From positions 5,440,586 through 5,504,585 of the forward strand of contig CP099849.1 in the NCBI GenBank assembly GCA_030062745.1: a stretch of 64,000 nt of DNA, given 5' to 3'. The stretch's first letter is position 1, and each line of letters begins with the position of its first letter. The translations under genes were made by a program, and so were the position numbers. The notes beneath the pieces were generated by a model. That model did no database searches. It saw only the letters and a list, made by a program, of their open reading frames with translations, and was not told where the DNA came from. Source of the stretch: Capitulum mitella (lineage: Eukaryota; Arthropoda; Thecostraca; Pollicipedomorpha; Pollicipedidae). Below, one piece after another: positions 8,376 through 64,000 of the stretch.

Positions 8376-8640
8376 GTGAAGACTTCACCATACAACATTG
8401 CTGTGACCTCACCCCGTCACTGTGCATATTTGGTTTGCGTCGTAATTTGCGGTGGTGAAATGGGTTTTCAGGCCGCTACAAGGCAAGCACGACAAACATG
8501 CATTTAAAGCCTTTTAATTTTATAATTTGCACCCCATCTTCCTTCCGCCTTTCGAAGACGCCCGACATAAGAGTTAGATTTCCGATCATTGCATCCAATG
8601 CAGCATCCCTTGCAAATGAAGTCACCTTAACCCTATTCCC

Positions 8641-9838
8641 GGAGGGCTAGACGGTATGGTCGATTCCCGGCGGGGGGGCGGATTCGGTCCCCCCTGAGAT
8701 CTCGAGAACTACTCGTCCGATTTCATCGCAACAAACAGCAATCGATTTGCCGTTACGTGAACTACACTTTTACAAAAAGAAATTTTCAAAATTTTGAAAT
8801 TTGTGGATACAGGGGGGCAAAAATGTCAAAATCGGGGGTACTTTTGGACTTCTTATAACTCCGTTGTTTATGGACTGATTTCGATGAAACTGGCATGAAT
8901 TGAGAGATTATGGATAGGGCTTTTACCATGGGTCCGCAAATCTGAAATTTTGAGAAAATTCATGGGTATTCACAGGGTTTCAAAAATAGGAGGATTAGTT
9001 CTCCAGCAACTGAATGAACAAAAGAGGCAAACACCCTTTTTTGGCTTCTGCTAGTCATGTTATACTAAATAAGTAAAAATCGCATTACAATGTTTGTATA
9101 ATGTTAGCATAGGCGGTGCCAGGGACATGAAAAAGGGGGAACTGTCATGGTCACACGTTTCTCAGATCAACTTGTGACCTTTAACCTTAAATGACCTCCA
9201 GTGACCTTGGGGTCACTTGGAATCATCTCGTGTGCATTTAATATTATCTGTAAACGTTTTCAATCATTTGAATTCGCTCTATTTCAAAAATTTCATTTTT
9301 GGGCTTTTGCGATATAGTGTACGCGCACTGACATTTTAGGTCATAGCTTCGTGACCCGACCTGATATCAAGCTGAAACTTGGTACACAAGTAGAGGGCAC
9401 CCTTCTACGTCAGATATATTCCGGGTTTGGCATTTGAAAAAAACGGCGCCGAAATTCTAGCAAAAAAACTGATTTTGACTTTTGACCTTGACCTGACCTT
9501 GTAAAATAATCTCAGATAAACAAAATTACGTCTGCACATTGCCCAACTATTTAGCTATACATCCATGTAAAGTTCTAAGTTCTAGCTTTAAAACTCTGTT
9601 TTTTGCAGACATTTTCATTTTACCATCAACATGGCCAAAAATGACATGAGGTGCCTCCCAAAAACGTTGCCTGGCTCTGCCCCTGAGCAAAATAGAATTT
9701 TGAAATTTTGTCACAGCACGAAGGAAGAATAGCTAGGAAAAGTCAGCAAGTTTCGTGAAGCTGCGTTAAAAAGCCTGGAATTAGCAAGCAAAAAACCCGA
9801 GGGGGGCGGATTCCGCCCCCCCCCTGCCGGGAATAGGG
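8641..9838 (+). mobile_element. TTAA-type non-autonomous element, copy A
   Basis: The 1,198-bp copy starts CCCTATTCCCGG and ends CCGGGAATAGGG, with TTAA on both sides (8,637-8,640 and 9,839-9,842). Next to each end lies a G/C-run segment with GGCGGATTCGG-type sequence. The interior has no open frame but many TGACCT/AGGTCA hexamers, for example a cluster of three at about 9,483-9,500. A TTAA target duplication with a CCC-start terminal repeat is what piggyBac-superfamily elements show, so I infer a piggyBac-mobilised MITE. No autonomous partner is in this window. Confidence 0.85.
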
Positions 9839-10058
9839 TTAACAGTCAACCTAGTATATGCATCTATATCATGTCAATGCTCCTGCAAAAGTTGGTAGTA
9901 GGTGCAACGCTCTTGCACATTGACCATTTGTGTCGTGGTCGCCCTTCAATAATGCACATGGCCCAACACCGAGCAATGTGGTCTCTCGAACCTCACAGAA
10001 TAAACAATAGAAAAAATAACACATTCTCATTGCATTGTACGAGACGAGACCGGACTTT

Positions 10059-18510: not shown

Positions 18511-18595
18511 GGTTGATAAGATGCAATCAGTGGCATAATATAGATATAGTTATAATTAAAATAATATAATATAATATAAAAATATAATTAAAATA

Positions 18596-19652
18596 GTGGA
18601 TACAAGGGGGCAAAAATGTCAAAATGGGGGGTACTTTCGGACTTCTTATAACTCCCTTGTTTATCGACCGATTTCGATAAAACTGGCATGAATCGACAGA
18701 TTATGGATAGGGCTTTTACCATGGATCCGCAAATCTGAAATTTTGAGAAAATTCATGGGCGTTCACAGGGTTTCAAAAATAGGAGGATTAGTTTTCTAAT
18801 AACTGAATGAACAAAAGAGACAAACACCCTGTTTGGCTTCTGTTAGTCATGTCATACTAAACAAGTACAAATCGCATTACAATGTTTGTATAATGTTAGC
18901 GTAGGCGGTGCCAGGGACATGAAAAACGGGAACTGTCATGGTCACGCGTTTCTCAGATCAACTTGTGACCTTTAACCTTAAATGACCCCCAGTAATCTTG
19001 GGGTCACTTGGAATCATCTCGTTTGCATTTAATATTATCCGTAAACGTTTTCAATCATTCGAATTCACTCTATTTCAAAAATTTCATTTTAGGGCTATTG
19101 CGATATAGGGTACGCGCACTGACGTTTTAGGTCATAGCTCCGTGACCCGACCTGATATCAAGCTGAAACTTGGTACACAAGTAGAAGGCACCCTTCTACG
19201 TCAGATGTATTCCGGGTTTGGCTTTGAAAAAAACGGCACCGAAATTATTGCGAAAAAAACTAATTTTGACTTTTGACCTTATAAACCCGACCTTATAAAG
19301 TGTCGCTTATAAAGTGACCTCAGATAAACAAACGTACGCCTGCGCATTGCCCAGCTATTTAGCTATACATCCATATAAAGTTTTAAGGTCTATATTATTC
19401 TTAAAAACTCTGTTTTTGGCAGACATTTTCCTTTTACCATCAACAGGTCTCAAAATGGCATGAGGTGCCTCCCAAAAACGTTGCCTGGCTCCGCCCCTGA
19501 GCAAAACGGAATTTTGAAATTTTGTCATGGTACGTAGAAAGAATAGCTAGGAAAAGTTACCAAGTTTCGTGAAGCTGCGTTAAAAAGCCTGGAATTGGCA
19601 AGCAAAAAACTCGAGGGGGGGCCTGATTCAGCCCCCCCTGCCGGGAATAGGG
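18596..19652 (+). mobile_element. TTAA-type element, copy B (5' truncated)
   Basis: The sequence follows copy A from GTGGATACAAGGGGGCAAAAATG to the right end CCGGGAATAGGG and then TTAA (19,653-19,656). The left about 150 bp, including the left terminus, are missing and replaced by an AT-rich stretch (18,541-18,595). Confidence 0.85.
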
Positions 19653-19656
19653 TTAA

Positions 19657-20309: not shown

Positions 20310-20313
20310 TTAA

Positions 20314-21521
20314 CCCTATTCCCGGCGGGGGGGGGCGGAATCCGCCCCCCTCGGGTTTTTTGCTTGCCAATTCCAGGCTTTTTAACGCAGCCTCACGAAA
20401 CTTGGTCACTTTTCCTAGCTATTCCTTCTACGCGCCGTGACAAAATTTCGAAATTCTATTTTGCTCAGGGGCGGAGCCAGGCAACGTTTTTGGGAGGCAC
20501 CTCAGGTCATTTTTGGCCATGTTGAGGGTAAAAGGAAAATGTCTGCCAAAAACAGAGTTTTTAAGATAAAACTTAAAACTTTATATGAATATATAGCTAA
20601 ATAGTTGGTCAATGTGCACATGTAATTTTGTTTATCTGAGGTCACTTTACAAGGTCAGGTCAAGGTCAAAAGTCAAAATTTGTTTTTTCGCAATAATTTC
20701 GGTGCCGTTTCTTCAAATGCCAAACCCGGAATATATATGACGTAGAAAGATGCCCTCTACTTGTGTACCGAGTTTCAGCTTGATATCAGGTCGGGTCACG
20801 GAGCTATGACCTAAAATGTCAGTGCACGTACTCTATGTCGCAAAAGCCAAAAAATGAATTTTTTGGAATAGAGTGAATTTAATCGATTAAAAACGTTTAC
20901 AGATAATATTGAATGCACACGACATCATTCCAGGTGACCCCAAGGTCACTGGAGGTCATTTAAGGTCAAAGGTCACAAGTTGATCTGAAGAACGTGTGAC
21001 CATGACAGTTCCCCCTTTTTTTATGTCCCTGGCACCGCCTATGCTAACATTATACAAACATTGTAATGCGATTTGTACTTCTTTAGCATAACATGACTAG
21101 CAGAAGCTAAAAAAGTGTTTTGGCCTCTTTTGTTCATTCCGTTATTAGAAAACTAATCCCCCTATTTTTGAAACCCTGTGAACGCCCATGAATTTTCTCA
21201 AAATTTCAAATTTGCATACCCATGGTAAAAGCCCTATCCATAATCTCTCGATTGATGCCAGTTTCATCAAAATCGGTCGATAAACAACGGAGTTATAAGA
21301 AGTCAAAAAGTACCCCCCATTTTGACATTTTTGCCCCCCTGTATCCACAAATTTCAAAATTTTGAAAATTTCTTTTTATAAAAATGTAGTTCACGTCACG
21401 GCAAATCGATTGCCGTTTGTTGCGATGAAATCGAATAAGTAGTTCTCGAGATCTCAGGGGGGGCCGAATCCGCCCCCCCTGCCGGGAATCGGCCATACCG
21501 TCTAGCCCTCCGGGAATAGGG
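20314..21521 (-). mobile_element. TTAA-type element, copy C (reverse orientation)
   Basis: A full-length 1,208-bp copy in reverse orientation with TTAA at 20,310-20,313 and 21,522-21,525. The ends are CCCTATTCCCGG and CCGGGAATAGGG. It carries the same TGACCT clusters as the other copies and no coding sequence. Confidence 0.88.
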
Positions 21522-21525
21522 TTAA

Positions 21526-23263
21526 AGTACTGTTCAGGGCGCCACAGTGTTCACAGACACGGCCAGGTAAATGCTCAGCTGTGGAAGTTCTGATTTAGAT
21601 GTCACAATGAATCGCTAACAGTTCGAAACCCTTGAATGGACTGATTAAGACACACTCACTTTGATATGAGTGTGCGGCGACTTGCAAACGTCCTCATCAC
21701 GACGCAAAACGTTCATGGAGATTTTGACCTGCCATTATGGTCAGACCGGGACCAAGACTTGAAGTCCGTTCTGTGCTCCGGTTTGACAACAGCTTTCTTT
21801 TGAGCGGTGTTTGTTGTTTGCCATATGTTGAGTACATCGGGGGTTCCCCGTTAGCAGCATGCTTACGTACGTTGTTGTGCACTTAGTTGTGTCCCAGTCA
21901 CAACCGAAATCGATTGAAAAAAACGAAGACGCCGGTGTCGTCGCCAATCCGACGATCGAGCAGGTTCGTGAATGCGCTCAAAGATGGCCCTCTACCCATA
22001 CTTGAAGATGGAGTACACAAGACACTAGCCAGTTCCAACGTTCCAGTTGCACAATGCCTCATCTTTGCACGGAGAAGGTTGTATCGTTTGGAAGAATAAA
22101 AAGGTTGTATCGATCGGAGAGGGTAACGGGGTTGTTCTACACGGCTGAGCCTGACGGCCGGGTTTCAACGTTCATCCTTTTCAAATCCCATTTCTCTTTT
22201 TGATGCCCAATTTCAAGTTCCATGCCCGCATTTATCTCGCTTTCGTGCTGGTATTAGTGTAACGTTTGCCATTCTCGATATCAGAATGATGTAATGATCA
22301 TCGTAGGCTGAAAGACCGTACTCATCACTCACTATAGCCTACCTCACTGCTCTCTGGCAGCCAACCCATCTCGGCTTTTGTCGGAAACTTTCAGATGTTC
22401 TGGCGCCCCGTTTTGGTTTTTCCGCCCGAACAAGATGGTTTTCCGGAAACTGTCACGCTCGTCACCTTTCCTCCTAAGCAGTCATTTGTGGTCAGATGTG
22501 AAGCCAGGATTTCACCAAGGAGGGGGCAGGACAAATCTAATCTCCCCTTAAAACTGAAAACGTCTGGGATTTCGAATACTTCTTGTTCAGGATCGATCAA
22601 TTTTCATGTTTGATACGTAAAGGAACCTTAAATATTCAGCCTCAAGGGGATCCTGGCCCACCTCGTTTACGGTCCTGGCACTGGTTCTGTTGGCGGCGAG
22701 TTGACAAGAACCGTATTTTTCGTGGGGATTAGGTATGAAACGCCAGATACTCCTCGGCTTCATCCAAGAGACGCTTTGGCTTTCATTAGTTCTGTTTATT
22801 ATCGGCCACGAACTATCAGTTTCAACTCAACAAGTCACGAATCATGTCACATTGAAGTCAATGGTCTCTCGATAGGGTGCGTGACGGCTTTTTCACAAGA
22901 CACACAGATTACAGAAGTATGCCACTGCGGCAAGCAACGCGCAGGAATTGATACGCGATCGACATCGATATGTCGACAGTAACCTGCAAACACAAAACGA
23001 CACAAACAGAGCGAATAAATACAATGTTCGACACCGGCCCATTCGGCTCGGTTTGATGCCTTTACCTATTTACCCCGTTTCCGTTGTTCTGTGAGTACCA
23101 GTCCTTACCCACGATGAACGCTCGTCGATTTCGACGCTCGACGTCGAGGACGGTCCGCCTGAGGGCTCCGCTGCCGTGAAGGCGGCGGCGGCGCCAGACG
23201 GTGACCAGGAGGGCAGCTGCGGTCCCTGACGCGACCGAGGCCGCCTCCGGGCGTCCAGCGCCG
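21526..23263. other. intergenic; 3' flank of the LDLa gene
   Basis: No gene is recognised. A minus-strand AATAAA at about 22,797-22,802 could be the polyadenylation signal of the LDLa gene. From 23,070 to 23,263 a different minus frame stays open, holds a short hydrophobic run followed by WRRRR, and ends at a donor-like GTAAGG (about 23,110). Confidence 0.4.
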
Positions 23264-25987
23264 TCACGGCGCAACCGGGGCCGCCGCAGCCGCGCGGGCC
23301 GTCCTCAGGAACTGGTGGCAGTGGAGCTCGTCGTAGCCGTCAGCGCAGTCGGGCCGGCCGTCGCAGCGTGTCTCGAGCGGCATACAGCGGTCGTCGCAGC
23401 GATACTCGGAGCCGGCGCAGGGCGCCGACCGCGAGCAGCCGTGCTCCGGTGACTCGTCCGAGCCGTCGGCGCAGTCCTTGCGCCCGTCGCACATGTAGCA
23501 AAAGTCGATGCACCTGGCGTCACTGATACAACGGAACTGATCCTTCTTGCAGCCGGGCTCGACGGGGCAGCCCCTCTCGTCAGAACCATCGAGGCAATCT
23601 CGTCGACCGTCGCATCGATGCAGATGGTCAAGGCACCTCCCATCGCACCGAAACTCATGAGATGTGCAAGGTCTTGGAGTGGTTGCTGGTGGAGGGCAGC
23701 CCCTCTCGTCAGAACCATCGAGGCAGTCTTGTCGACCGTCGCATAGATGCAGATGGTCAAGGCACCTCCCATCGCACCGAAACTCATGAGATGTGCAGGG
23801 TCTTGAAGTGGTTGTCGGCGGAGGGCAGCCCCTCTCGTCAGAACCATCGAGGCAGTCTTGTCGACCGTCGCACCGATGCAGATGGTCAAGGCACCTCCCA
23901 TCGCACCGAAACTCATGAGATGTGCAAGGTCTTGGAGTGGTTGGTGGTGGAGGGCAGCCCCTCTCGTCAGAACCATCGAGGCAGTCTTGTCGACCGTCGC
24001 ATAGATGCAGATGGTCAAGGCACCTCCCATCGCACCGAAACTCATGAGATGTGCATGGTCTTGGAGTGGTTGCTGGTGGAAGGCAGCCACATTCGTCAGA
24101 ACCATCGAGGCAGTCTTGTCGACCGTCGCATCGATACAGATAATCAAGACATCTCCCATCGCACCGAAACTCATGAGATGTGCAGGGTCTTGGAGTGGTT
24201 GTCGGCGGAGGGCAGCCCCTCTCGTCAGAACCATCGAGGCAATCTCGTCGACCGTCGCATCGATGCAGATGGTCAAGGCACCTCCCATCGCACCGAAACT
24301 CATGAGATGTGCAAGGTCTTGGAGTGGTTGCTGGTGGAGGGCAGCCCCTCTCGTCAGAACCATCGAGGCAGTCTTGTCGACCGTCGCATAGATGCAGATG
24401 GTCAAGGCACCTTCCATCGCACCGAAACTCATGAGATGTGCAAGGTCTTGGAGTGGTTGGTGGTGGAGGGCAGCCCCTCTCGTCAGAACCATCGAGGCAA
24501 TCTCGTCGACCGTCGCATCGATGCAGATGGTCAAGGCACCTTCCATCGCACCGAAACTCATGAGATGTGCAGGGTCTTGGAGTGGTTGTTGGCGGAGGGC
24601 AGCCCCTCTCGTCAGAACCATCGAGGCAATCTCGTCGACCGTCGCATCGATGCAGATGGTCAAGGCACCTTCCATCGCACCGAAACTCATGAGATGTGCA
24701 AGGTCTTGGAGTGGTTGGTGGTGGAGGGCAGCCCCTCTCGTCAGAACCATCGAGGCAGTCTTGTCGACCGTCGCATAGATGCAGATGGTCAAGGCACCTT
24801 CCATCGCACCGAAACTCATGAGATGTGCAAGGTCTTGGAGTGGTTGGTGGTGGAGGGCAGCCCCTCTCGTCAGAACCATCGAGGCAATCTCGTCGACCGT
24901 CGCATCGATGCAGATGGTCAAGGCACCTTCCATCGCACCGAAACTCATGAGATGTGCAGGGTCTTGGAGTGGTTGTTGGCGGAGGGCAGCCCCTCTCGTC
25001 AGAACCATCGAGGCAATCTCGTCGACCGTCGCATCGATGCAGATGGTCAAGGCACCTTCCATCGCACCGAAACTCATGAGATGTGCAAGGTCTTGGAGTG
25101 GTTGGTGGTGGAGGGCAGCCCCTCTCGTCAGAACCATCGAGGCAATCTCGTCGACCGTCGCATCGATGCAGATGGTCAAGGCACCTCCCATCGCACCGAA
25201 ACTCATGAGATGTGCAGGGTCTTGGAGTGGTTGTTGGCGGAGGGCAGCCCCACTCGTCAGAGCCATCGAGGCAGTCTAGTCGACCGTCGCATCGATGCAG
25301 ATGGTCAAGGCACCTTCCATCGCACCGAAACTCATGAGATGTGCAGGGTCTTGGAGTAGTTGTTGGCGGAGGGCAGCCCCACTCATCAGAACCATCGAGG
25401 CAGTCTTGTCGACCGTCGCACCGATGCAGATGGTCAAGGCACCTTCCGTCGCACCGAAACTCATGAGATGTGCAGGGTCTTGGAGTGGTTGGTGGCGGAG
25501 GCGGCGGGCAGTTCTTTTCGTCGCTGCCATGGATGCAATCGTTCACACCGTCACAAAGCTTGTAGTTCGATAGGCACCGGCCGTCACACCGGAACTCACC
25601 CTCGCCGCACAGTGGAGCGCAGCCGTGCTCTGTCAGTTCGTCGGAGCCGTCGTCGCAGTCGCTCATGCCGTCACACAGGTAACAGCGCTCAATGCAGGTG
25701 CCGCTGAGACAGCGGAATTCGTCGGCCGTGCACCAGCGGGCGTTCCGGGCTTGCCGCCGGCCGCGTCGACATGCCAGCTCGTCCGAGCCGTCCGTGCAGT
25801 CCGGGGACGAGTCGCAGAGCAGTGCAGCCGCGATGCAGCGACCGTCGCCGCATCGGAACTGCCTGCTGCCGCAGCGGGCCGTCGAGTTGGCTCCGGTCGG
25901 CGCCCGTTCCACCGGGGCGAGGGCGGCGGGAGGCCGCCTGGCCCAGGCCCCGGCCACCAGCAGAGCGGCCAGCAGCGTCGTCTTCAT
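23264..25987 (-). CDS. secreted protein with 20 LDL-receptor class A repeats
   Basis: An intronless 907-residue frame. Residues 1-17 look like a signal peptide (MKTTLLAALLVAGAWA). LDLa modules follow at 39-73, 86-123 and 127-160, then fifteen near-identical modules at 172-807 with PPPTTTPRP-type linkers, then 813-851 and 857-890. Each has the six cysteines and the calcium-binding CDGRxDCxDGSDE signature; most array modules are only 34 residues. LDLa modules bind calcium and usually ligands on lipoproteins or other extracellular proteins. No EGF, propeller, protease or membrane segment is present in this frame, so I infer a secreted multivalent binding protein. The eleventh array unit has an extra cysteine (DECGC). 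The start is the first Met, with a TATA-like element upstream. The ligand is unknown. A downstream exon in another frame cannot be excluded. Confidence 0.85.
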   Translation of the reverse strand: MKTTLLAALLVAGAWARRPPAALAPVERAPTGANSTARCGSRQFRCGDGRCIAAALLCDSSPDCTDGSDELACRRGRRQARNARWCTADEFRCLSGTCIERCYLCDGMSDCDDGSDELTEHGCAPLCGEGEFRCDGRCLSNYKLCDGVNDCIHGSDEKNCPPPPPPTTPRPCTSHEFRCDGRCLDHLHRCDGRQDCLDGSDEWGCPPPTTTPRPCTSHEFRCDGRCLDHLHRCDGRLDCLDGSDEWGCPPPTTTPRPCTSHEFRCDGRCLDHLHRCDGRRDCLDGSDERGCPPPPTTPRPCTSHEFRCDGRCLDHLHRCDGRRDCLDGSDERGCPPPTTTPRPCTSHEFRCDGRCLDHLHRCDGRRDCLDGSDERGCPPPPTTPRPCTSHEFRCDGRCLDHLHLCDGRQDCLDGSDERGCPPPPTTPRPCTSHEFRCDGRCLDHLHRCDGRRDCLDGSDERGCPPPTTTPRPCTSHEFRCDGRCLDHLHRCDGRRDCLDGSDERGCPPPPTTPRPCTSHEFRCDGRCLDHLHLCDGRQDCLDGSDERGCPPPATTPRPCTSHEFRCDGRCLDHLHRCDGRRDCLDGSDERGCPPPTTTPRPCTSHEFRCDGRCLDYLYRCDGRQDCLDGSDECGCLPPATTPRPCTSHEFRCDGRCLDHLHLCDGRQDCLDGSDERGCPPPPTTPRPCTSHEFRCDGRCLDHLHRCDGRQDCLDGSDERGCPPPTTTSRPCTSHEFRCDGRCLDHLHLCDGRQDCLDGSDERGCPPPATTPRPCTSHEFRCDGRCLDHLHRCDGRRDCLDGSDERGCPVEPGCKKDQFRCISDARCIDFCYMCDGRKDCADGSDESPEHGCSRSAPCAGSEYRCDDRCMPLETRCDGRPDCADGYDELHCHQFLRTARAAAAAPVAP
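23567..25474 (-). repeat. 129-bp coding tandem array, 15 units, 387-bp higher-order period
   Basis: Fifteen consecutive 43-codon units (the last lacks its linker) encode the central LDLa modules. Units differ at only a few positions: HLHR or HLHL, RQ or RR, and PPPT, PPPP or PPPA in the linker. Two consecutive trimers repeat the same order, so identical blocks recur every 387 bp (from 24,005, 24,392 and 24,779). This indicates recent homogenisation by unequal exchange and makes the locus a likely length polymorphism. Confidence 0.92.
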
Positions 25988-26099
25988 CGTCAGCTAGCGG
26001 CGGCGCCGAGGGCGCAAGAGCGTGCCGTGCGCGTGCGACGGGTCCTCCCAACTGCGCGACACTGCGGCTGTCCCGCTATTGGCTGTGCTGGCCCGGCCC

Positions 26100-32857: not shown

Positions 32858-33983
32858 AGGTGGTCCTGAAATATCCTGACGTCTAAAAACGCGCGGGAAA
32901 TTGCCAGACCGGCACCGTGGGTTGCCGTGGCATGGCAAGGCGTGGTGCTTCAAATATATGTCACAGTCTGCAAACGATGGGCAGAATATTGGCAAGATGT
33001 TGCGGCAGCTTCGATTCTTCCCTAAATGAGACAGTAGGTTGCCTGTCCGGGATAGTTTCTGTTAATCTAATCTATCCCCAAAATACATTTTCTCACCGAA
33101 TTTTGGCCATATGTTTTTCAACACTGCGCAGAAGTGTAAAAGCTGTCCTAACACAGGCAGAACAAACTTCTCCATTTCCAGGTTATCGGCCCCAAAATAA
33201 AAAAGTCACCTCAGATTGAAATATTTGCCTTAGGCCCGCCTCAGTGAGATATCATCAATATTCGTCATTATCTGCAGTCTGGGCCATGCCATGTTCGTTA
33301 AGCAGATGAAGCATTCTCATGGGATGCTCAAACCCATGCACTAGGAACAGCAAGATTGACGGTTTTAATATATGACTGATTAATTTTCTGTTTTCCTCGC
33401 GTAAAACTCGGGTTTAACCGCCTAGTTCAATGAAGTTCTACCAATCAGGTACTGGGATTTTAGCAGGGTTTTCGGATCAGGATCATTGGTGATGACTACA
33501 GCACTGCTGGACTGTTACCGCATTCATATAAACCTTATCTCACCATAGCGAAACCGCCCTGCGCACCAGCTCGCCGTTCAGTTTTCTTGCGCTTGAACAC
33601 GTCAAAGATGGTTATCATCATTTTTAACGTGCTTACGATGCAATGAAACGCCTTGGCCGCCCACCAGACAATCGCGGCATCGGGTGCCGGCGTACTAATT
33701 ACGAAACACGCTCACCAGCGGTCACTAGGTGTGCCTGCAATACGTATTATGAAGTGATGCTTCTAAGTGTGCTCCCACATTACTCAGTGATTCAACACAT
33801 CCTTCGTTGATAAGATGCTGCTTTGCGAGCGCAGCGCTTTATGGAATACCTTCCTGGGTACGCTAGTACACCTGGCTTTTTTTCCTTGCATGGGCAAAGG
33901 ATCTTGACTGGGGGGGCAAAGTGCCCGACTGGGGGGGCATTTGCCCCCCCAGTTAACATGTTAAAATAGGCCCTGATAGGCGG

Positions 33984-34702
33984 TGTCAGGGACATGAAAA
34001 AGGGGAACTGTCATGGTCACACGTTCTTGAGATCAACTTGTGAGCTTTCACTTTAAATGACCTCCAGTGACCATGTGGTCAGCTGGAATGATTTCACGTG
34101 CAGTTGATATTATCTGTAAACGTTTTCAATCATTTAAATTCACTCTATTTCAAAAACTTTATTTTATGGCTGTTGCGATATAGGGTACGCGCACTGACAT
34201 TTCAGGTCATAGCTCCGTGACCCGACCTGATATCAAGCTGAAACTTGATACACAAATAGAGAGCACCTGTCCACGTCATATATATTCCGGGTTTGGCACT
34301 TGAAAAAACAGCACCGAAATCATTGCAAAAAAAAAAATTTTTGGCTTTTGACCTTGACCTGACCTTGCAAACTGACCTTAGATGAACAAAATTATATCTG
34401 CACATTGCCCAACTATTTAGCTATACATTCATATAAAGTTTTAGTTCTATCATAAAAACGCTGTTTTTGGCAAACATTTTCCTTTTACCCCCAACATGGC
34501 CAAAAATGGCCTGAGGTGCATCCCAAAAACGTTGCCTGGCTCCGCCCCTGAGCAAAATAGAATTCTGAATTTTTTCACTGCACGTAGAAAGAATAGCCAC
34601 GAAAAGTCGCCAAGTTTCGTGAAACTGCGTCAAAAACCCTGGAAATGCCAAGCAAAAAACCAGAGGGGGGCGGATTCAGCCCGCCCTCTGCTGGGAATAG
34701 GG
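33984..34702 (+). mobile_element. TTAA-type element copy D, right part
   Basis: Resumes copy D with TGTCAGGGACATG and runs to the right end GGGAATAGGG at 34,702. The TTAA that follows (34,703-34,706) is shared with copy E. Confidence 0.88.
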
Positions 34703-34706
34703 TTAA

Positions 34707-35909
34707 CCCTATTCCCGGAGGGCTAGACGGTATGGTCGATTCCCGGCAGGGGGGGGGGGCGGATTCGGTCCCCCGGGATCTCGAGAACTACTCGTCCGAT
34801 GTCATCGCAACAAACGGCAATCGATTTGCCGTGACGTGAACTGCATTTCTGTAAAAAGAAATTTTCAAAATTTTGAAATGTATGGATACAGGGGGCAAAA
34901 ATGTCAAAATGGGGGTACTTTTGGACTTCTTATAGCTCCGGTGTTTTTAGACCGATTTCAATGAAACTGGCATGAATGGAGTATATGGATAGGACTTTTA
35001 CCACGGGTACACAAATCTGAAATTTTGAAAAACTTCATGGGCGTTCACAGGTTTTCAAAAATAGGAGGATTAGTTTTCTAACAGCTGAATGAACAAAGAA
35101 GGCAAAAACACTTTTTTGGCTTCTGCTAGTCGTGTTATGCTATAGAAGTACAAATCTCATCACAATGTTTGTATAATGTTAGCATGGGCGGTGCCAGGGA
35201 CATGAAAAAGGGAACCTGTCATGGTCACACGTTCTTCAGATCAACTTGTGACCTTTGACCTCAAATAACCTCCAGTGACCTTGGGGTCACTTGGAATGAT
35301 CTCGTGTGTATTTAATATTGTCTGTAAACATTTTCAATCGTTTGAATTCACTCTAATTTCAAAAATTTCATTTCATGGCTATTGCGATATAGTGTACGCG
35401 CACTGACATTTTAGGTCATAGCTCCGTGACCGACCTGATATCAAGCTGAAACTTGATACACAAGTAGAGGGCATCGTTCTACGTCATGTATATTCCGGGT
35501 TTGGTATTTGAAAAAACGGCGCCAAAATTATTGCAAGAAAACAAATATTGACTTTTGACCTTGACCTGACCTTGTAAAGTGACCTCAGACAAACAAAATT
35601 ATATCTGCACATTGCCCAAGTATTTAGCTATACATCCATATAAAGTTTTAAGTTCTATCTTAAGAACTCTGTTTTTGGCAGACATTTTCCTTTTACCCTC
35701 AACATGGCAAAAAATTGCCTGAGGTGCCTCCCAAAAACGTTGCCTGGCTCTGCCCCTGAGCAAAATAGAAGTCTGAAATTTTGTCACGGCACGTAGAAAT
35801 AATAGCTAGGAAAAGTCATCAAGTTTCGTGAAGCTGCGTCAAAAAGCCTGGAATTGGCAAGCAAAAAACCCGAGGGGGGCGGATTCAGCCCTTTCTGCCG
35901 GGAATAGGG
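34707..35909 (+). mobile_element. TTAA-type element copy E
   Basis: A full-length 1,203-bp copy directly downstream of copy D, joined through a single TTAA. The right end GGGAATAGGG is followed by TTTA instead of TTAA. It probably arose by insertion into the terminal TTAA of copy D. Confidence 0.87.
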
Positions 35910-35913
35910 TTTA

Positions 35914-36480
35914 TCAACCAGGCTTTGGCCCTGGTGCCATCTGCCACGAGAGCAGGGGCTGTGTTACGGGAGAGTAGCAGCGTAGTCAGAGTTTGGTCCG
36001 AGAAATCGAATGAGCCCCTCCGGTAATGGACAGCGACGCCCAAAATGTAGTGTCATCAGAAAGATTAGTTTAAAGATAGAAGAAAATAATTTGCGTAATG
36101 CGCGTTTATTTCGAAATCTGCATGTGTGGTTTGTGGTGCAGTCAGTTGCTTATACTTATCAAACCTTTCTATTTTAGCCTTGACCCACACCCCCTTACGA
36201 AAATCTTCTCCACGGGCACTGAGCGGGGAGACATCAAGCGTAAGCTACTTTAAGCTTGGAAAGTTTACCATTAGTCTTATGACGATACGTGGAAAGAAAA
36301 GGTCCTGACATGTCCCCCCGCGGTGTTGCTCCTGTCCTGGTTTGACAGCGTGGTGCCACCACGGCGTGAAGGATAGTCTCCGAGCGAGGCCTGAATATGT
36401 GTACATGAAGATCTGCGCGAGACGAAAGGCGCATTCGCGGGACGCTTCTCACGGCTTCTTTTTTCTGGGCAGCCGTAGTC
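35914..36480 (-). mobile_element. LTR retrotransposon fragment
   Basis: Contains the 265-bp LTR at 36,046-36,310 with internal-like sequence on both sides. Upstream on the minus strand (36,311-36,480) is GC-rich sequence ending in a purine-rich GCGGGGGGACA tract. Downstream (35,914-36,045) begins with a primer-binding-like TTTTGGGCGTCGC. No gag or pol frame is present. The left side is cut by TTAA-type element copy E. Confidence 0.5.
36046..36310 (-). repeat. candidate 265-bp LTR
   Basis: On the minus strand it begins TGTCAGGACC and ends GACACTACA (5'-TG..CA-3'). It carries a TATA-like AAGTATAAG (about 36,150-36,160) followed, about 45 bp later, by AATAAA (36,105-36,110) about 60 bp before the end. 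This is the order expected for promoter, R and polyadenylation signal in an LTR. No second copy is in the window. Confidence 0.55.
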
Positions 36481-36860: not shown

Positions 36861-36981
36861 AAGATAGAAAGATAGATGGATACATCACTTTATGCTTTAT
36901 TATGTGCTTTCTACCTATCTTTTATGTATTGCAGCCGTTTCTTTCGTTATTTTTGCCGAATTCTCTTTAAAATTGGCAGAA

Positions 36982-37050
36982 AATATTGCAGGGGCCCAAA
37001 CCAACATTGGACCCCCTCGAAAGGATACAAATCGACACCCCTGCATAACG
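36982..37050. repeat. GGGGCCCAAACCA repeat end, shared with 63,903
   Basis: GGGGCCCAAACCAACATTGGACC then CCCTCGAAAGGATACAAATCGACACCC is repeated with small changes at 63,903-63,982. It is probably an end segment of an unidentified dispersed element. Confidence 0.6.
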
Positions 37051-41991: not shown

Positions 41992-42160
41992 CTGTGGGGA
42001 GCACTGCTGGTTCCAGATGTAATCGGGCGCATGGGGACGTCTTGTCTGTGCACTTTTGGCACATTTCTCACACGCGGGGCAGTGGATGTCTCTTTAATCA
42101 AACGAAGCAACAGTTTTGAAGCGATGCGTCTATTCAGAACATTTCTCGCTCTTTAGTTAA

Positions 42161-43367
42161 CCCTATTCCCGGAGGGCTAGACGGTATGGTCGATTCCCGG
42201 CAGGGGGGGCGGATTCGGCCCCCCCCCTGAGATTTCGAAAACTAACTGTTCGATTTCATCGCAACAAACGGCAATCGATTTGCCGCGACGTGAACTACAT
42301 TTTTATAAAAAGAAATTTTCTAAATTTTGAAATCTGTGGATACAGAGGGGCAAAAATGTCAAAATCGGGAGTACTTTTGGACTTCTTATAACTCCGTTGT
42401 TTATGGACCGATTTCGATGAAACTGGCATGAATCGAGAGATTATGGATAGGGCTTTTACCATGGGTCCGCAAATCTGAAATTTTGAGAAAATTCATGGGC
42501 GTTCACAGGGTTTCAAAAATAGGATTAATTTTCTAACAACTGAATGAACAAAAGAGGCAAACACCCTTTTTTGGTTTCTGCTAGTCATGTTATACTAAAG
42601 AAGTACAAATCGCATTACAATGTTTGTATAATGTTAGCATAGGCGGTGCCAGGGACATGAAAAAGGGGAACTGTCATGGTCACACGTTTCTCAGATCAAC
42701 TTGTGACCTTTAACCTTAAATGACCTCCAGTGACCTTGGGGTTACTTGGAATGATTTCGTGTGCATTTAATGTTATCTGTAAACGTTTTCAGTCATTTGA
42801 ATTCACTCTATTTCAAAAATTTCATTTTAGGGCTATTGCGATATAGGGTACGCACACTGACATTTTAGGTCGTAGCTCCGTGACCCGACCTGATATCAAG
42901 CTGAAACTCGGTACACAAGTAGAGGGCATCCTTCTACGTCATATATATTCCGGGTTTGGCATTTGAAAAAACAACGCCGAAATTATAGCAAAAAAACAAA
43001 TTTTGACTTTTGACCTTGACCTGACCTTGTAAAATGACCTCAGATAAACAAAATTACATCTGGACATTGCCCAACTATTAAGCTATACAGTGATATAAAG
43101 TTTTAAGTTCTGCCTTTAAAACTCTGTTTTTGGCAAACATTTTTTTTTTACCCTCAGCATGGCCAAAAATGGCATGAGGTGCCTCCGAAAAACGTTGCCT
43201 GGCTCCGCCCCTGAACAAAATAGAATTTTGAAATTTTTTTCATAGCACGTAGGAAGAATAGCTAGGAAAAGTCACCATGTTTCGTAAAGATGCGTTACAA
43301 AGCCTGGAATTGGCAAGCAAAAAACCCGAGGGGGGCGAATTCAGCCCCCCCCCTGCCGGGAATACGG
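42161..43367 (+). mobile_element. TTAA-type element copy F, nested in the Penelope element
   Basis: A full-length 1,207-bp copy with TTAA at 42,157-42,160 and 43,368-43,371. It starts CCCTATTCCCGG and ends CCGGGAATACGG (one change). It splits the reverse-transcriptase reading frame of the Penelope-like element, so it inserted later. Confidence 0.9.
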
Positions 43368-43560
43368 TTAAACAGTTTGCTTTCTTTGTCCGCATATCCT
43401 ATTGGCTTCTTGGTATATGTTTCGGTGTCAGTAAACATTCGGGCCATATTTCTATTATATTCCGTCCTGTTCGTAATGACGATGCCGCCTCCTTAATCTC
43501 CCGGAGTTATTACCACACTGCAATCTTTGGCTAGGCCCTTTGGTACGCGCGAATGTCTTT

Positions 43561-48306: not shown

Positions 48307-59933
<11,627 letters not shown>

Positions 59934-60540
59934 GGCTGCAGGCTGGCCCAAGGCCACTTTGTATCAGATGGCCTCACTTGACTTCTGTGATAAATGTCTG
60001 AAATGCAAGTGTTTCAGATTACACATTTCTAGAATACCTGGAGATGACACCATGGACTTTGGTCACACAAGTATGAATGAGAGGCATCAAAATACTATTG
60101 AAATGTTAGCAATGTGAAACCATTGAGCCAGTGAAGCATGCCACATTCCTCTCAAAGCCCTATTTATTGTTCCTATCCTTGCATTATTGTGTTTCTTCAT
60201 AACTGACAATTATTTCTTCCTTTCAACATTAAACCACTCCATTATAGGTGTCAATTTCACACCCTTGGTTTTTCTCAAACATCTTTTGAATGATTTAACT
60301 GACATTTCTATGCTCACAGTGTCTTTACAAAAATGGCCAGCAATCCATTAACTGTTTTCTCTATCAAATTAGACCACAACTTTCTGAAATGGTAAGGTTT
60401 AAATGCAGTGGTCACCACCCAGCCGCGCATCTAAAAAATGCATAGCCACAATCGCGACAACCATGGCTTCGCATAACCTCGGACGACTTTCAGGTGTCTT
60501 TCACGTGACATCATATTGCGTACAAATAAAGAGAACACCT

Positions 60541-63240
60541 GAACCCTATTCATGTTTACAGCATACTTAAGGCCACCAAACTGACAAAAAGTGATGGATG
60601 TTAAAGCTATTTATAGACTTAGCAACAAGGGCTATAACATACTTCCTTTCAACCTACCCTGACCAAAGATGCAATGTGCAAACAAGCCAAATAGGGTGGT
60701 TTTAGGAAGGCTAAAAGGGTGGCTATCTAATGGTGCCACTCCAGTCCTCAATCAACACAATTTTAGATTTTAGGAGAAGAGAGAAAAGTGACCTAAACAG
60801 CCACTTACTGCTATCCCAGGGGCTGAATGTGACTCCTTATGACTGATGGACCATGTTCCAAACCTGCACTAGCAAATGTCCAACATTTCCAATATGCTAA
60901 AGCCCAGTAACACTGGGAATTCAGCCACATGCCAGAGCTGCAGATGTTTTTGCTGACCTCTCAACCATGGCCCACTGCTGGGCCAGCTTCCTACAAAGCA
61001 TATGGACTGCAAGATAGCAAGAACATTTGTCATGCTTTGACCAATCTGAACGATTCAGCATAATGGAGTGAGTCAAAAGGGTATGTCCTGGTCAGTCTTG
61101 CAATGGCAATCTCCTCCAAAGGAGAAGATCTGTATGAGGTGTTCCACTCTTTTATATATTAATATCATATCTGCTTAAGCAGAGTCATTATGTCTATCCC
61201 CAAAAAATGTTAATATATACCTTAACAAGGTTTTCCAAGATGTCATCAGACATCTCATTCTGTGAAGCTTTGACTTAGCTTTGACAAAAGGTCATCAGCT
61301 GTGCATTTCCAGGAATCCACCTATGACTAGGAATGCAAAAGACCTTAATCAGAAGCTTTAATATTGTCAGATCACAATCTCCTGGACTTCAATTACAATG
61401 GGGTAGTCTTCATTACCTTTTCAAGGGCCTGGATTGCACCTAGAATCAGCAGTTTTCCTCCCCATCATTCTGATATAGTCTAAATAATGTAGCTGACACA
61501 GCATGGTCCAGCCAATACAAGATTTAAGATTTTGTAGGATTTTTGAACCCATTTCCACACATATCTTCTTTAATCTACAAGAAATGGAGAGCCCCACATT
61601 TGCAATACCCTTTTCTCATCAAACAATACAGGGTTGCCATTTCTCTCACAGCACAAAAACATGGATAGTTAGCATAGGCAGAAATTTTAAGCAGCATTTC
61701 AATAACAGCTCCAATCCCCAAAACCAAAACAGAAAAATCTGACTCTACTTAAGCTGCCAATGAAGACCACAAAATGCAGACTGAAAGGAAAAGTTCTGCA
61801 GTGTCTCTAAACCTCCAGTGACAATGCTGATGAAACCATCAAAGATCCCGTAGAGGTGATCAAAAAATAGGCATTACCAAGGTATTTTAATACTGAGTCC
61901 TCCAAACAGCTCAAAGTCCAGGCCTTGCAATGCATTTCATGACTTACACACTTTCCATTGCCTTTGCTTTCAAAATTTCAGTACATCTCTGCATCATCAG
62001 ACTTTTATTTCCACTACATGGTCAGCAAGCATCAACTCATCCCAATCACTTGTTATCTGTGACAGTGGCATCTCATATGGCAATGGTGGAAACATGAAAT
62101 GGTCTGCTTGTTAGTGCACACAACTAGTACCATTTGTGGGTAAAGAAGGGAGTAGGGCAACCATACACTATCTCCAGCAACCCAGGAACAGCAACTGGAC
62201 CAAAGCTTATTAGTCAAGGGTTTGTGTGGGGAAAAGTTTGTAGCCAAAGGTTTGTAAAAACAAAGTCTTTATCTGAAATGCTTCATATCAAGGAGCTGCA
62301 GGCTGACAAAGGGTGTTATCAGACTTAGCCCAATCCAAGAAAGAGGTCAGGTTAGGTTAGATTACTATTTTAGGTTTGTTCCTTCCCCATTACAAGTCTT
62401 ATAGGTTCTTAATATGCAACTTATTATTATACAGTCAACCCAGCATATGGCCCCTATTGAGACATAACCTAATATTCTGCTTTGCATGATCTAACCTTTG
62501 TTGCACAGAACCAAATATGATTGCACCTTTTTATCAGCCAGCAATATCTAGTATCCTATACCCACCTTATGTATGGTGTTGTGCCTACAGTGCCACAATG
62601 CTCCCATAAAGGCCCCCTGCAGTCAATGGGAGGTTGCAAAATATCCAATCAAGTTAGTCAGATGAACTGACTGATGCCCGACGAGACACAGGACTTGACC
62701 CAAGACTTTGGACACCTGAGCCCAAGAGGCTGTGTGTCCTAACTCACAAACAAACAAACAAACAAACAAGTTAGTAAGGAGAGAATCTACAAGTCCTTTA
62801 GTTCCATGGGCACAATCCCACCACTGTCATAGACATAAAACTATAAGGGGAAGCTGACACCTGCTACACCATTACTAGCTGATTCAGTATAAATGATCCT
62901 AATTTTTCAAAAAAACTGTAGGCTAATCCAATAAGGTTACTTGAATGTCTATATCCCATTATCAATACCATAGCAGTGTCATATCTGCATCCCAAAATCT
63001 TAAGCACATCCTTAATGTTTGCCCATAAAGTTCATGAAACAGAAAAAATCCACATTTTTAACTGCTATTCACATATGAATTTCTACTCCCTGCATATTTT
63101 CACTCACAGTTCTCCCCTTCAATGACTGGTTTGCAGCTTTTAGAACATTACCTAAACAAACTGCACCAAAGTTTGTGCCAATTTGTATCAAGACTTTTCC
63201 CTTTTCCATGCCAAGTGGCACTTTAAATCCCAGAGGACAT
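60541..63240. other. CpG-depleted block
   Basis: I count about four CpG dinucleotides in these 2.7 kb (near 61,050, 61,849, 62,679 and 62,682), whereas flanking sequence on both sides has many per 100-200 bp. TG and CA are abundant. No gene is recognised; a (CAAA)n tract lies at about 62,747-62,769. The block includes a decayed copy of Parg exon 1 flanks. Confidence 0.8.
60810..60995 (-). pseudogene. decayed copy of Parg exon 1 end and intron 1
   Basis: Matches 59,545-59,735 in the same orientation. CCAAACCTGCACTAGCAAATGTCCAACATT corresponds to CCAAACGCGCGCTGGCGAACGTCCAACATT. The minus-strand QQWAMVE end and a shifted donor region correspond to QRWAMVQ-GTCAGC. Most differences are CpG changed to TpG or CpA. 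The reading frame and donor are no longer usable. Confidence 0.75.
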
Positions 63241-64000
63241 CTCGGATGTTCTCAGCAGACGGGACCCAAAACGTTCTTAGCGGCCCGGTGACAATTCGCA
63301 CAACAAGACACACTAATGTCACCCAAGTTACCTCGATAGACACATCAACTTATTTCGCAGTTACCTAGGTGGACGCCGAATCCGTCTGGTACGTACGACC
63401 TAAGGTCTTACTTGTTTCTTGTTTCATTTTAGGGCCTTGAGTAAGGTAATCGCTATCACCGGTAAACAATTAACGCAGCCCAATGTGCGTGCATAGTTTG
63501 TTGTGGCTTACGACACATATACATATATATATATATGTATATATATATACAAATATAATATAATACATGCATAGTGCTTCCAGCACAAGTTGCGGTTTGT
63601 CTCGACAGCGCAATAATTGACGAAGCTCAAATAGGGTTCCAAATATACGTAGGGCCGTGGTTCCAAACTTAACCTATGAACTCTGTCCGCTTTGCCCGAG
63701 GCCTGATATCCCGGTAACTCACGAAAGAGGTTGGCAGACGGGGCACTGGGTAAGTAACTGGCGACGGATTGACACCCGACGAGACATGTCTTAACTCTTA
63801 ATTACTTCATTCTGAACCCGATTCTTCGCATTCTCCGTATCTCTTATCTGTTGTGGCCATTCTTATCATTACCTTTGCCCTCTAAAACCAGCGGAAACTA
63901 TTAGGGGCCCAAACCATCATTGGGGGCCCAAATGAATATTAGGTGAGCCAAGGCCCTCTCGAAAGGAATACCAGTTGGCACCCTTGCCTGACACCTGATA
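63241..64000. other. no gene recognised; repeat end at 63,903
   Basis: CpG content returns to normal. It contains a TA/CATA tract (63,518-63,560), a CCCGACGAGACA block shared with 62,676, and the GGGGCCCAAACCA repeat shared with 36,982. Confidence 0.45.

What the first reader, a model, noticed from the sequence alone, without database searches (positions are those of the whole stretch)
60541..63240. Sharp 2.7-kb CpG desert next to a housekeeping gene
CpG falls to about four sites in 2.7 kb with abrupt borders near 60,520 and 63,240, while the rest of the window, including introns and transposons, has normal CpG. This is the footprint of long-term germline cytosine methylation with deamination, which is unusual in arthropod non-genic DNA. 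Alternatives are insertion of foreign CpG-poor DNA or an assembly join.
Basis: partly seen in the sequence, partly recalled or inferred. Interest (0 to 1): 0.72.

Follow-up and report, generated by a model that had tools for sequence, protein, structure and literature searches.

The report
CpG-stripped domain at PARG gene start
A 3.3-kb stretch at the start of a DNA-repair enzyme gene has lost nearly all its CG pairs in the way chemically tagged (methylated) DNA does over time, while the DNA around it has kept its own, so it looks like a sharply bounded fossil of local DNA methylation; direct methylation data are still needed.

Summary
60,521-63,242 holds 4 CpG against 108 expected (O/E 0.04) with normal GpC; a further 511 bp (59,913-60,423) holds none. 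A 97-bp island (60,424-60,520) with 9 CpG separates them. The five longest CpG-free runs of the window all lie here.

The gene on the left is PARG (minus strand). The desert lies at its 5' end: the left border coincides with the start of detectable PARG homology (59,912). Missing CpGs are largely matched by extra TpG and CpA. Window DNA "deaminated" in silico reproduces the desert's G+C and dinucleotide ratios within 1.6 SD. Desert segment 60,803-60,990 is an old duplicate of PARG exon end plus intron (59,531-59,724): 7 of 7 CpGs are lost in it, 6 as TG or CA. One repeat family elsewhere in the window shows only 1.6-fold CpG hypermutability. This favours methylation-type deamination in a bounded cis-domain over foreign DNA; a misjoin is less likely but not excluded.

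The kind of process is known (mosaic germline methylation). Unusual are the depth, below what vertebrate-level hypermutability gives in my simulations, and the 5' restriction. Methylation, gene structure, species and genome-wide frequency could not be tested.

The parts
59913..60423 (.). left part of the CpG desert (511 bp, 0 CpG), directly upstream of the 5'-most detected PARG exon; putative intron or 5' flank
60424..60520 (-). 97-bp CpG-normal island (9 CpG, O/E about 1.6); putative promoter or short exon of PARG (CACGTG, and an ATG in good context, on the minus strand); role inferred
   Evidence: meaning of the motifs recalled, no call
60521..63242 (.). main CpG desert, 4 CpG of 108 expected
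60803..60990 (-). decayed duplicate of PARG exon end plus intron start; 0 of 7 CpG kept
   Evidence: 68% identity, E about 2e-19; score 172.5 against a maximum of 51.5 in 40 simulated sequences. Its translation has no Pfam match
59531..59724 (-). copy of that duplicate outside the desert, 7 CpG
59692..59912 (-). 5'-most detected PARG exon; homology to solved PARG chains starts at 59,912; the frame stays open to 59,963, so the true exon start is not fixed
   Evidence: no Pfam match for this exon alone
53528..59691 (-). further PARG exons and introns found here, with normal CpG (five introns, limits approximate, O/E 0.85-1.08)
63243..64000 (.). right flank with normal CpG (38 CpG, O/E 0.98); holds a repeat fragment at 63,821-63,923

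Best explanation
The desert is the mutational footprint of a bounded domain at the 5' end of the PARG gene that has been CpG-methylated in the germline for a long time. 5-methylcytosine deaminated to T on both strands, turning nearly every CpG into TpG or CpA, while the surrounding DNA stayed largely unmethylated and kept its CpGs. Shown: CpG-specific loss, TpG and CpA gain, sharp borders, CpG loss in the desert copy of a duplicate pair, normal CpG in the rest of PARG found here and in the repeats examined. Inferred: that methylation is the cause; that it acts in the germline; that it is a 5'-confined form of invertebrate gene methylation (5' introns or flank); and that the 97-bp island is an unmethylated promoter or exon.
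For: CpG 4 of 108 with GpC normal. CA+TG exceed background expectation by about 83 (454 against 371) where about 101 CpG are missing; both rise: TG 179 against 144, CA 275 against 227. Against 42 overlapping in-silico-deaminated windows of the same sequence, every strand-symmetric dinucleotide ratio is within |z| 1.6, and G+C is 0.402 against 0.415 +/- 0.035 (0.466 undeaminated). Duplicate pair: 7 of 7 CpG lost in the desert copy, 3 as TG, 3 as CA, 1 as CC, and the desert copy has no CpG of its own in the alignment; GpC in the same pair is kept at 6 of 12. Fold-back arms outside the desert, 69% identical: 7 of 31 CpGs are TG/CA in the other arm and 11 of 31 kept; read from the other arm, 9 of 30 and 11 of 30 (TG/CA share: 6/7 against 7/31 p 0.004, against 9/30 p 0.011). 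One repeat family, six copies outside: CpG transitions 29/465 against 90/2297 at other C/G, ratio 1.6. Precedents: Ciona sperm has near-100% and 0% methylated domains with sharp boundaries, and repeats follow their surroundings (PMC3827831, passages); in the spider Stegodyphus exons and introns are methylated about equally and intergenic DNA little (PMC6409797, passages); [quoted passage not shown]
Against: No methylation data, species identity, DNMT genes or RNA. [quoted passage not shown] the rest of the gene found here is not depleted. The depletion is deeper than expected: simulated CpG hypermutability of 20-fold leaves O/E about 0.14, 40-fold about 0.077, 80-fold about 0.038, while vertebrates show 5-20-fold (PMC12994199, passages). 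The pooled density of CG+TG+CA is lower in the main desert (0.168 per base) than in background (0.193), though in the left part it is 0.190, so the balance is not exact. The duplicate comparison rests on 7 CpGs; retention 0/7 against 11/31 or 11/30 alone is not significant (p 0.08).
Confidence: 0.65

Rival explanations
1. CpG-specific hypermutation that is not steady methylation: a faster or one-off process (strong methylation with poor T:G repair, or an enzyme acting on methylated CpG) erased CpGs from this segment.
For: O/E of 0.037 needs about 80-fold hypermutability in the finer simulation; the upper confidence limit, 0.095, needs a value between 20- and 40-fold. Vertebrates show 5-20-fold (PMC12994199, passages).
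Against: The simulation uses one simple mutation model. The desert's TpG+CpA ratio (1.39) is at or below the simulated values for 20-fold and more (1.39-1.53), so it gives no sign of a recent burst. No such mechanism in animals is known to me (recall).
Confidence: 0.12
2. Assembly artefact: a CpG-poor paralogous stretch joined to the PARG locus.
For: Detectable PARG homology begins exactly at the left border (59,912), so nothing shown ties the two sides together; the right border has no gene continuity and only 758 bp of flank; reads were not available.
Against: No Ns; the reading frame of the exon stays open across the left border to 59,963 (weak); the 97-bp island would need two extra joins.
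Confidence: 0.09
3. The region is part of a larger methylated, CpG-poor region, and CpG-normal pieces (97-bp island, right flank) are younger insertions; those borders then mark insertions rather than chromatin.
For: The right flank holds a repeat fragment (63,821-63,923 matching 36,899-37,010); sequence beyond 64,000 is unseen.
Against: The left border adjoins a PARG exon, not an insertion; no target-site duplication was obvious by eye at the island.
Confidence: 0.08
4. Inserted foreign DNA from a CpG-poor genome.
For: Abrupt borders; very low CpG.
Against: It contains a diverged copy of the neighbouring PARG exon and intron; apart from CpG loss its composition matches local DNA; phage and plasmid collections gave no match (weak for an animal genome).
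Confidence: 0.06

Closest known systems
Mosaic gene-body methylation domains of invertebrates (Ciona; PMC3827831, passages)
   Same: methylated and unmethylated domains with sharp boundaries; repeats take the state of their surroundings, as the duplicate pair here seems to
   Different: in Ciona gene bodies are methylated and promoters spared; here only the 5' end or flank is depleted and the rest of the gene found here is normal; methylation was not measured here
5'-confined arthropod gene methylation (first three exons in Planococcus citri and Nicrophorus vespilloides; PMC7343188, section 8)
   Same: restricted to the 5' part of the gene
   Different: that signal is described for exons; here apparently non-coding DNA is stripped and the adjacent exon is not
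CpG-depleted genes of the copepod Eurytemora carolleeae (PMC11706791, passages)
   Same: CpG O/E taken as evidence of historical methylation; low values (0.09-0.80 in 80 candidate genes)
   Different: there depletion is genome-wide (mean 0.5) in coding sequence; here it is one domain in a CpG-normal window
Repeat-induced point mutation of fungi (recalled, no call)
   Same: C-to-T changes in a segment that contains a duplicate
   Different: classical RIP hits CpA and raises TpA (recalled); here CpA is raised and TpA is 0.74 against 0.71 in background

Membership tests
Germline CpG-methylated domain (mutational footprint) | CpG depleted with GpC normal | tested here: met
   CpG 4 of 108 expected, GpC 121
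Germline CpG-methylated domain (mutational footprint) | TpG and CpA raised by about the missing CpG | tested here: met
   +83 against -101; ratios within 1.6 SD of deaminated DNA; pooled CG+TG+CA density is however lower than background, 0.168 against 0.193
Germline CpG-methylated domain (mutational footprint) | direct 5mC in germ cells | not testable with these tools
   no reads or methylation data
Germline CpG-methylated domain (mutational footprint) | DNMT1 (and usually DNMT3) in the genome | not testable with these tools
Germline CpG-methylated domain (mutational footprint) | depletion within the range given by known CpG hypermutability (5-20-fold) | tested here: inconclusive
   model gives O/E about 0.14 at 20-fold and 0.038 at 80-fold against 0.037 observed; a coarser run gave 0.16 and 0.086; model-dependent
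Invertebrate gene-body methylation | depletion across exons and body of the gene | tested here: not met
   five PARG introns have O/E 0.85-1.08 and the nearest exon 0.78; only the 5' end is depleted
Invertebrate gene-body methylation | domain lies inside a transcribed unit | tested here: inconclusive
   the domain adjoins the 5'-most detected exon; the transcription start is unknown
Fungal-type RIP | CpA to TpA bias | tested here: not met
   CpA raised, TpA 0.74 against 0.71

The most novel reading that the evidence does not exclude
In this animal a CpG-eroding state is confined to a 3.3-kb cis-domain at the 5' end of one housekeeping gene, with a protected island of about 100 bp inside it and a border at the edge of a coding exon, and removes CpGs faster relative to other mutations than vertebrate methylation does (about 40-80-fold by simulation), next to repeats that show almost no CpG hypermutability (1.6-fold in the one family examined).
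Probability: 0.2. Interest if true: 0.72.

Novelty: new variant of a known kind. Interest (0 to 1): 0.48.

Why it matters
CpG loss through germline methylation is usually read as an average over genes. Here one locus seems to show both states side by side: an old duplicate with one copy inside and one outside the domain, sharp borders, and a small protected island. If confirmed, it gives a place to ask what sets methylation borders in otherwise CpG-normal DNA, and whether the relative mutation rate of methylated CpG can exceed that of vertebrates.

Tried and rejected
Foreign origin: plasmid and phage searches gave no match, and the PARG duplicate argues against it. RIP-like or deaminase action on other cytosines: TpA is not raised and G+C is explained by CpG loss alone. 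RNA families at 56-64 kb: three hits to two miRNA models, all below their gathering scores, on the AT repeat at 56.6 kb. tRNA: none (bacterial settings). Further PARG homology in the desert: no convincing match beyond 60,803-60,990; the best others scored 35 and 51 against a null maximum of 51.5, inverted best 50, and extension of the duplicate past 60,990 was not significant (9.0; 300 shuffles mean 8.5, max 14). CpG-collapsed comparison with the rest of the window gave only weak extra hits (best E 0.012; reversed control E 0.23). A two-state HMM segmented by A+T content rather than CpG and was not used. A first simulation with coarse time steps gave higher floors (O/E 0.096 at 50-fold, 0.086 at 80-fold); the finer time course is used, and the disagreement shows that the fold estimate is rough. 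Literature: eight answered paper searches listed nothing whose title or abstract start described a single locus like this; this is not a full survey. A barnacle search was a guess at the taxon and led nowhere. PARG exon limits were set by eye translations. On re-checking, a claim that the left border lies inside the conserved exon was withdrawn: homology starts at the border; confidence in the best explanation was lowered from 0.68 to 0.65 and the misjoin rival raised from 0.06 to 0.09 for that reason.

Full report
Observation. The CpG desert is real. In 60,521-63,242 there are 4 CpG where base composition predicts 108 (O/E 0.037, Poisson 95% CI 0.010-0.095), while the mirror dinucleotide GpC occurs 121 times. 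Markov simulations of 64 kb gave no CpG-free run over 217 bp in 60 tries and no 2,722-bp window with fewer than 107 CpG; the poorest real window in the first 59,900 bases has 86. The five CpG-free runs in the desert are 830, 798, 561, 532 and 512 bp; the next longest in the window is 218. Two corrections: the depletion extends left to 59,913 (0 CpG in 59,913-60,423), and it is interrupted by a 97-bp island at 60,424-60,520 with 9 CpG (5.5 expected; P about 6e-14 at the desert's own rate, but 744 of 5,990 background windows of that size reach 9). The borders are sharp (22 against 0 and 0 against 18 CpG in 300-bp flanks).

Surroundings. The neighbouring gene is poly(ADP-ribose) glycohydrolase (PARG) on the minus strand. 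Of six PARG exon translations scanned, four pass the Pfam PARG cut-offs and the two 5'-most do not; a joined translation matches solved PARG chains with E down to 1.7e-107, and the 5'-most exon alone matches them at 2.4e-8. In that exon the match starts at the codon at 59,912, which is the desert's left border; the frame stays open to 59,963, so it is not known whether the exon crosses the border or ends there. The desert thus lies directly upstream, at the gene's 5' end. Five other PARG introns (limits approximate) have normal CpG (O/E 0.85, 0.87, 0.96, 0.96, 1.08), as does the right flank (0.98). Where transcription starts is unknown. The island contains, on the minus strand, a CACGTG and an ATG in good context (sequence; meaning recalled), so promoter or first exon is a guess.

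Nature of the loss. TpG and CpA are both raised: TG 179 against 144 and CA 275 against 227 expected at background ratios, a gain of about 83 against about 101 CpG missing. The pooled density of CG+TG+CA is lower than background in the main desert (0.168 against 0.193 per base) and similar in the left part (0.190). When 42 overlapping 2,722-bp windows of the same sequence were deaminated in silico (96% of CpG to TpG or CpA), their G+C became 0.415 +/- 0.035 (desert 0.402; untreated 0.466) and every strand-symmetric dinucleotide ratio of the desert fell within 1.6 standard deviations of theirs. CpG deamination alone can therefore explain the composition. Gain of both TpG and CpA and sparing of other cytosines argue against single-strand deaminases and fungal-type RIP (TpA 0.74 against 0.71).

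A natural control. Desert segment 60,803-60,990 is a diverged duplicate (68% identity, E about 2e-19; score 172.5 against a null maximum of 51.5 in 40 simulations) of 59,531-59,724, the PARG exon end and following intron, 1.27 kb away outside the desert. All 7 CpGs of the outside copy are lost in the desert copy (3 TG, 3 CA, 1 CC), and the desert copy has none of its own in the alignment; GpC is kept at 6 of 12. CpG bases changed by transition at 6/14, other C/G at 12/80 (p 0.025). Which state is ancestral at each site is not known. As a control of similar divergence, a fold-back element at 54,751-56,645 (arms 69% identical) keeps 11 of 31 CpGs with TG/CA at 7 of 31, or, read from the other arm, 11 of 30 and 9 of 30 (TG/CA share p 0.004 and 0.011; retention p 0.08 both ways). 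In one six-copy repeat family outside, CpG transitions are 29/465 (6.2%) against 90/2297 (3.9%) at other C/G: 1.6-fold. PMC12994199 gives under 1.5-fold for species without substantial methylation and 5-20-fold for vertebrates (passages). So the background here looks largely unmethylated and the desert looks like a position effect.

How extreme. Starting from the window's own DNA, a simple model with 20-fold CpG hypermutability levels off at O/E about 0.14, 40-fold at about 0.077 and 80-fold at about 0.038. A coarser simulation gave higher floors (0.16 at 20-fold, 0.086 at 80-fold), so the figure is rough; still, 0.037 (upper limit 0.095) is lower than 20-fold gives in either run. This is the least explained part.

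Mechanism. Most likely (0.65) the region is a bounded germline-methylated domain whose 5-methylcytosines deaminated over a long time. Precedents: Ciona sperm has all-or-none domains with sharp borders and repeats follow their surroundings (PMC3827831, passages); a spider methylates exons and introns about equally and intergenic DNA little (PMC6409797, passages); [quoted passage not shown] It differs from typical gene-body methylation in sparing the adjacent exon and the downstream gene. As a membership claim, 'gene-body methylation' fails its body-wide feature; 'footprint of CpG methylation' meets the two composition features that could be tested, and its depth is inconclusive.

Limits. The animal's own genome could not be searched (six unanswered tries), so I cannot say whether such domains are common in this species, whether it has DNMTs, or what it is. 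The window ends 758 bp beyond the right border, which could be the edge of a younger insertion, and a misjoin at either border is not excluded. No methylation, RNA or read data exist here.

Verdict. A true, strong and sharply bounded CpG-deamination footprint; known kind of process, unusual in depth and placement.

Noticed in passing
54751-56645: Fold-back element: two arms of about 0.9 kb in inverted orientation, 69% identical, inside a PARG intron.
   Followed up: partly
23267-25993: 909-codon open frame on the minus strand with cysteine-rich repeats that look like LDL-receptor class A (by eye, no family search), carrying fifteen 129-bp tandem repeats at 94% match.
   Followed up: no
8627-9846, 18568-19656, 20310-21528, 33976-34706, 34703-35919, 42157-43376: Repeat family of about 1.2 kb, six copies 83-93% alike in pairwise matches, used as background control.
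   Followed up: partly
62677-62688 and 63775-63786: The 12-mer CCCGACGAGACA occurs once inside the desert (holding 2 of its 4 CpGs) and once in the right flank, within a 23-mer that is 83% alike; with 2 mismatches allowed the number of matches is no more than chance (3 against 3.4).
   Followed up: partly
63821-63923: Repeat fragment in the right flank matching 36899-37010 at 70%; the right border may lie near a younger insertion.
   Followed up: no
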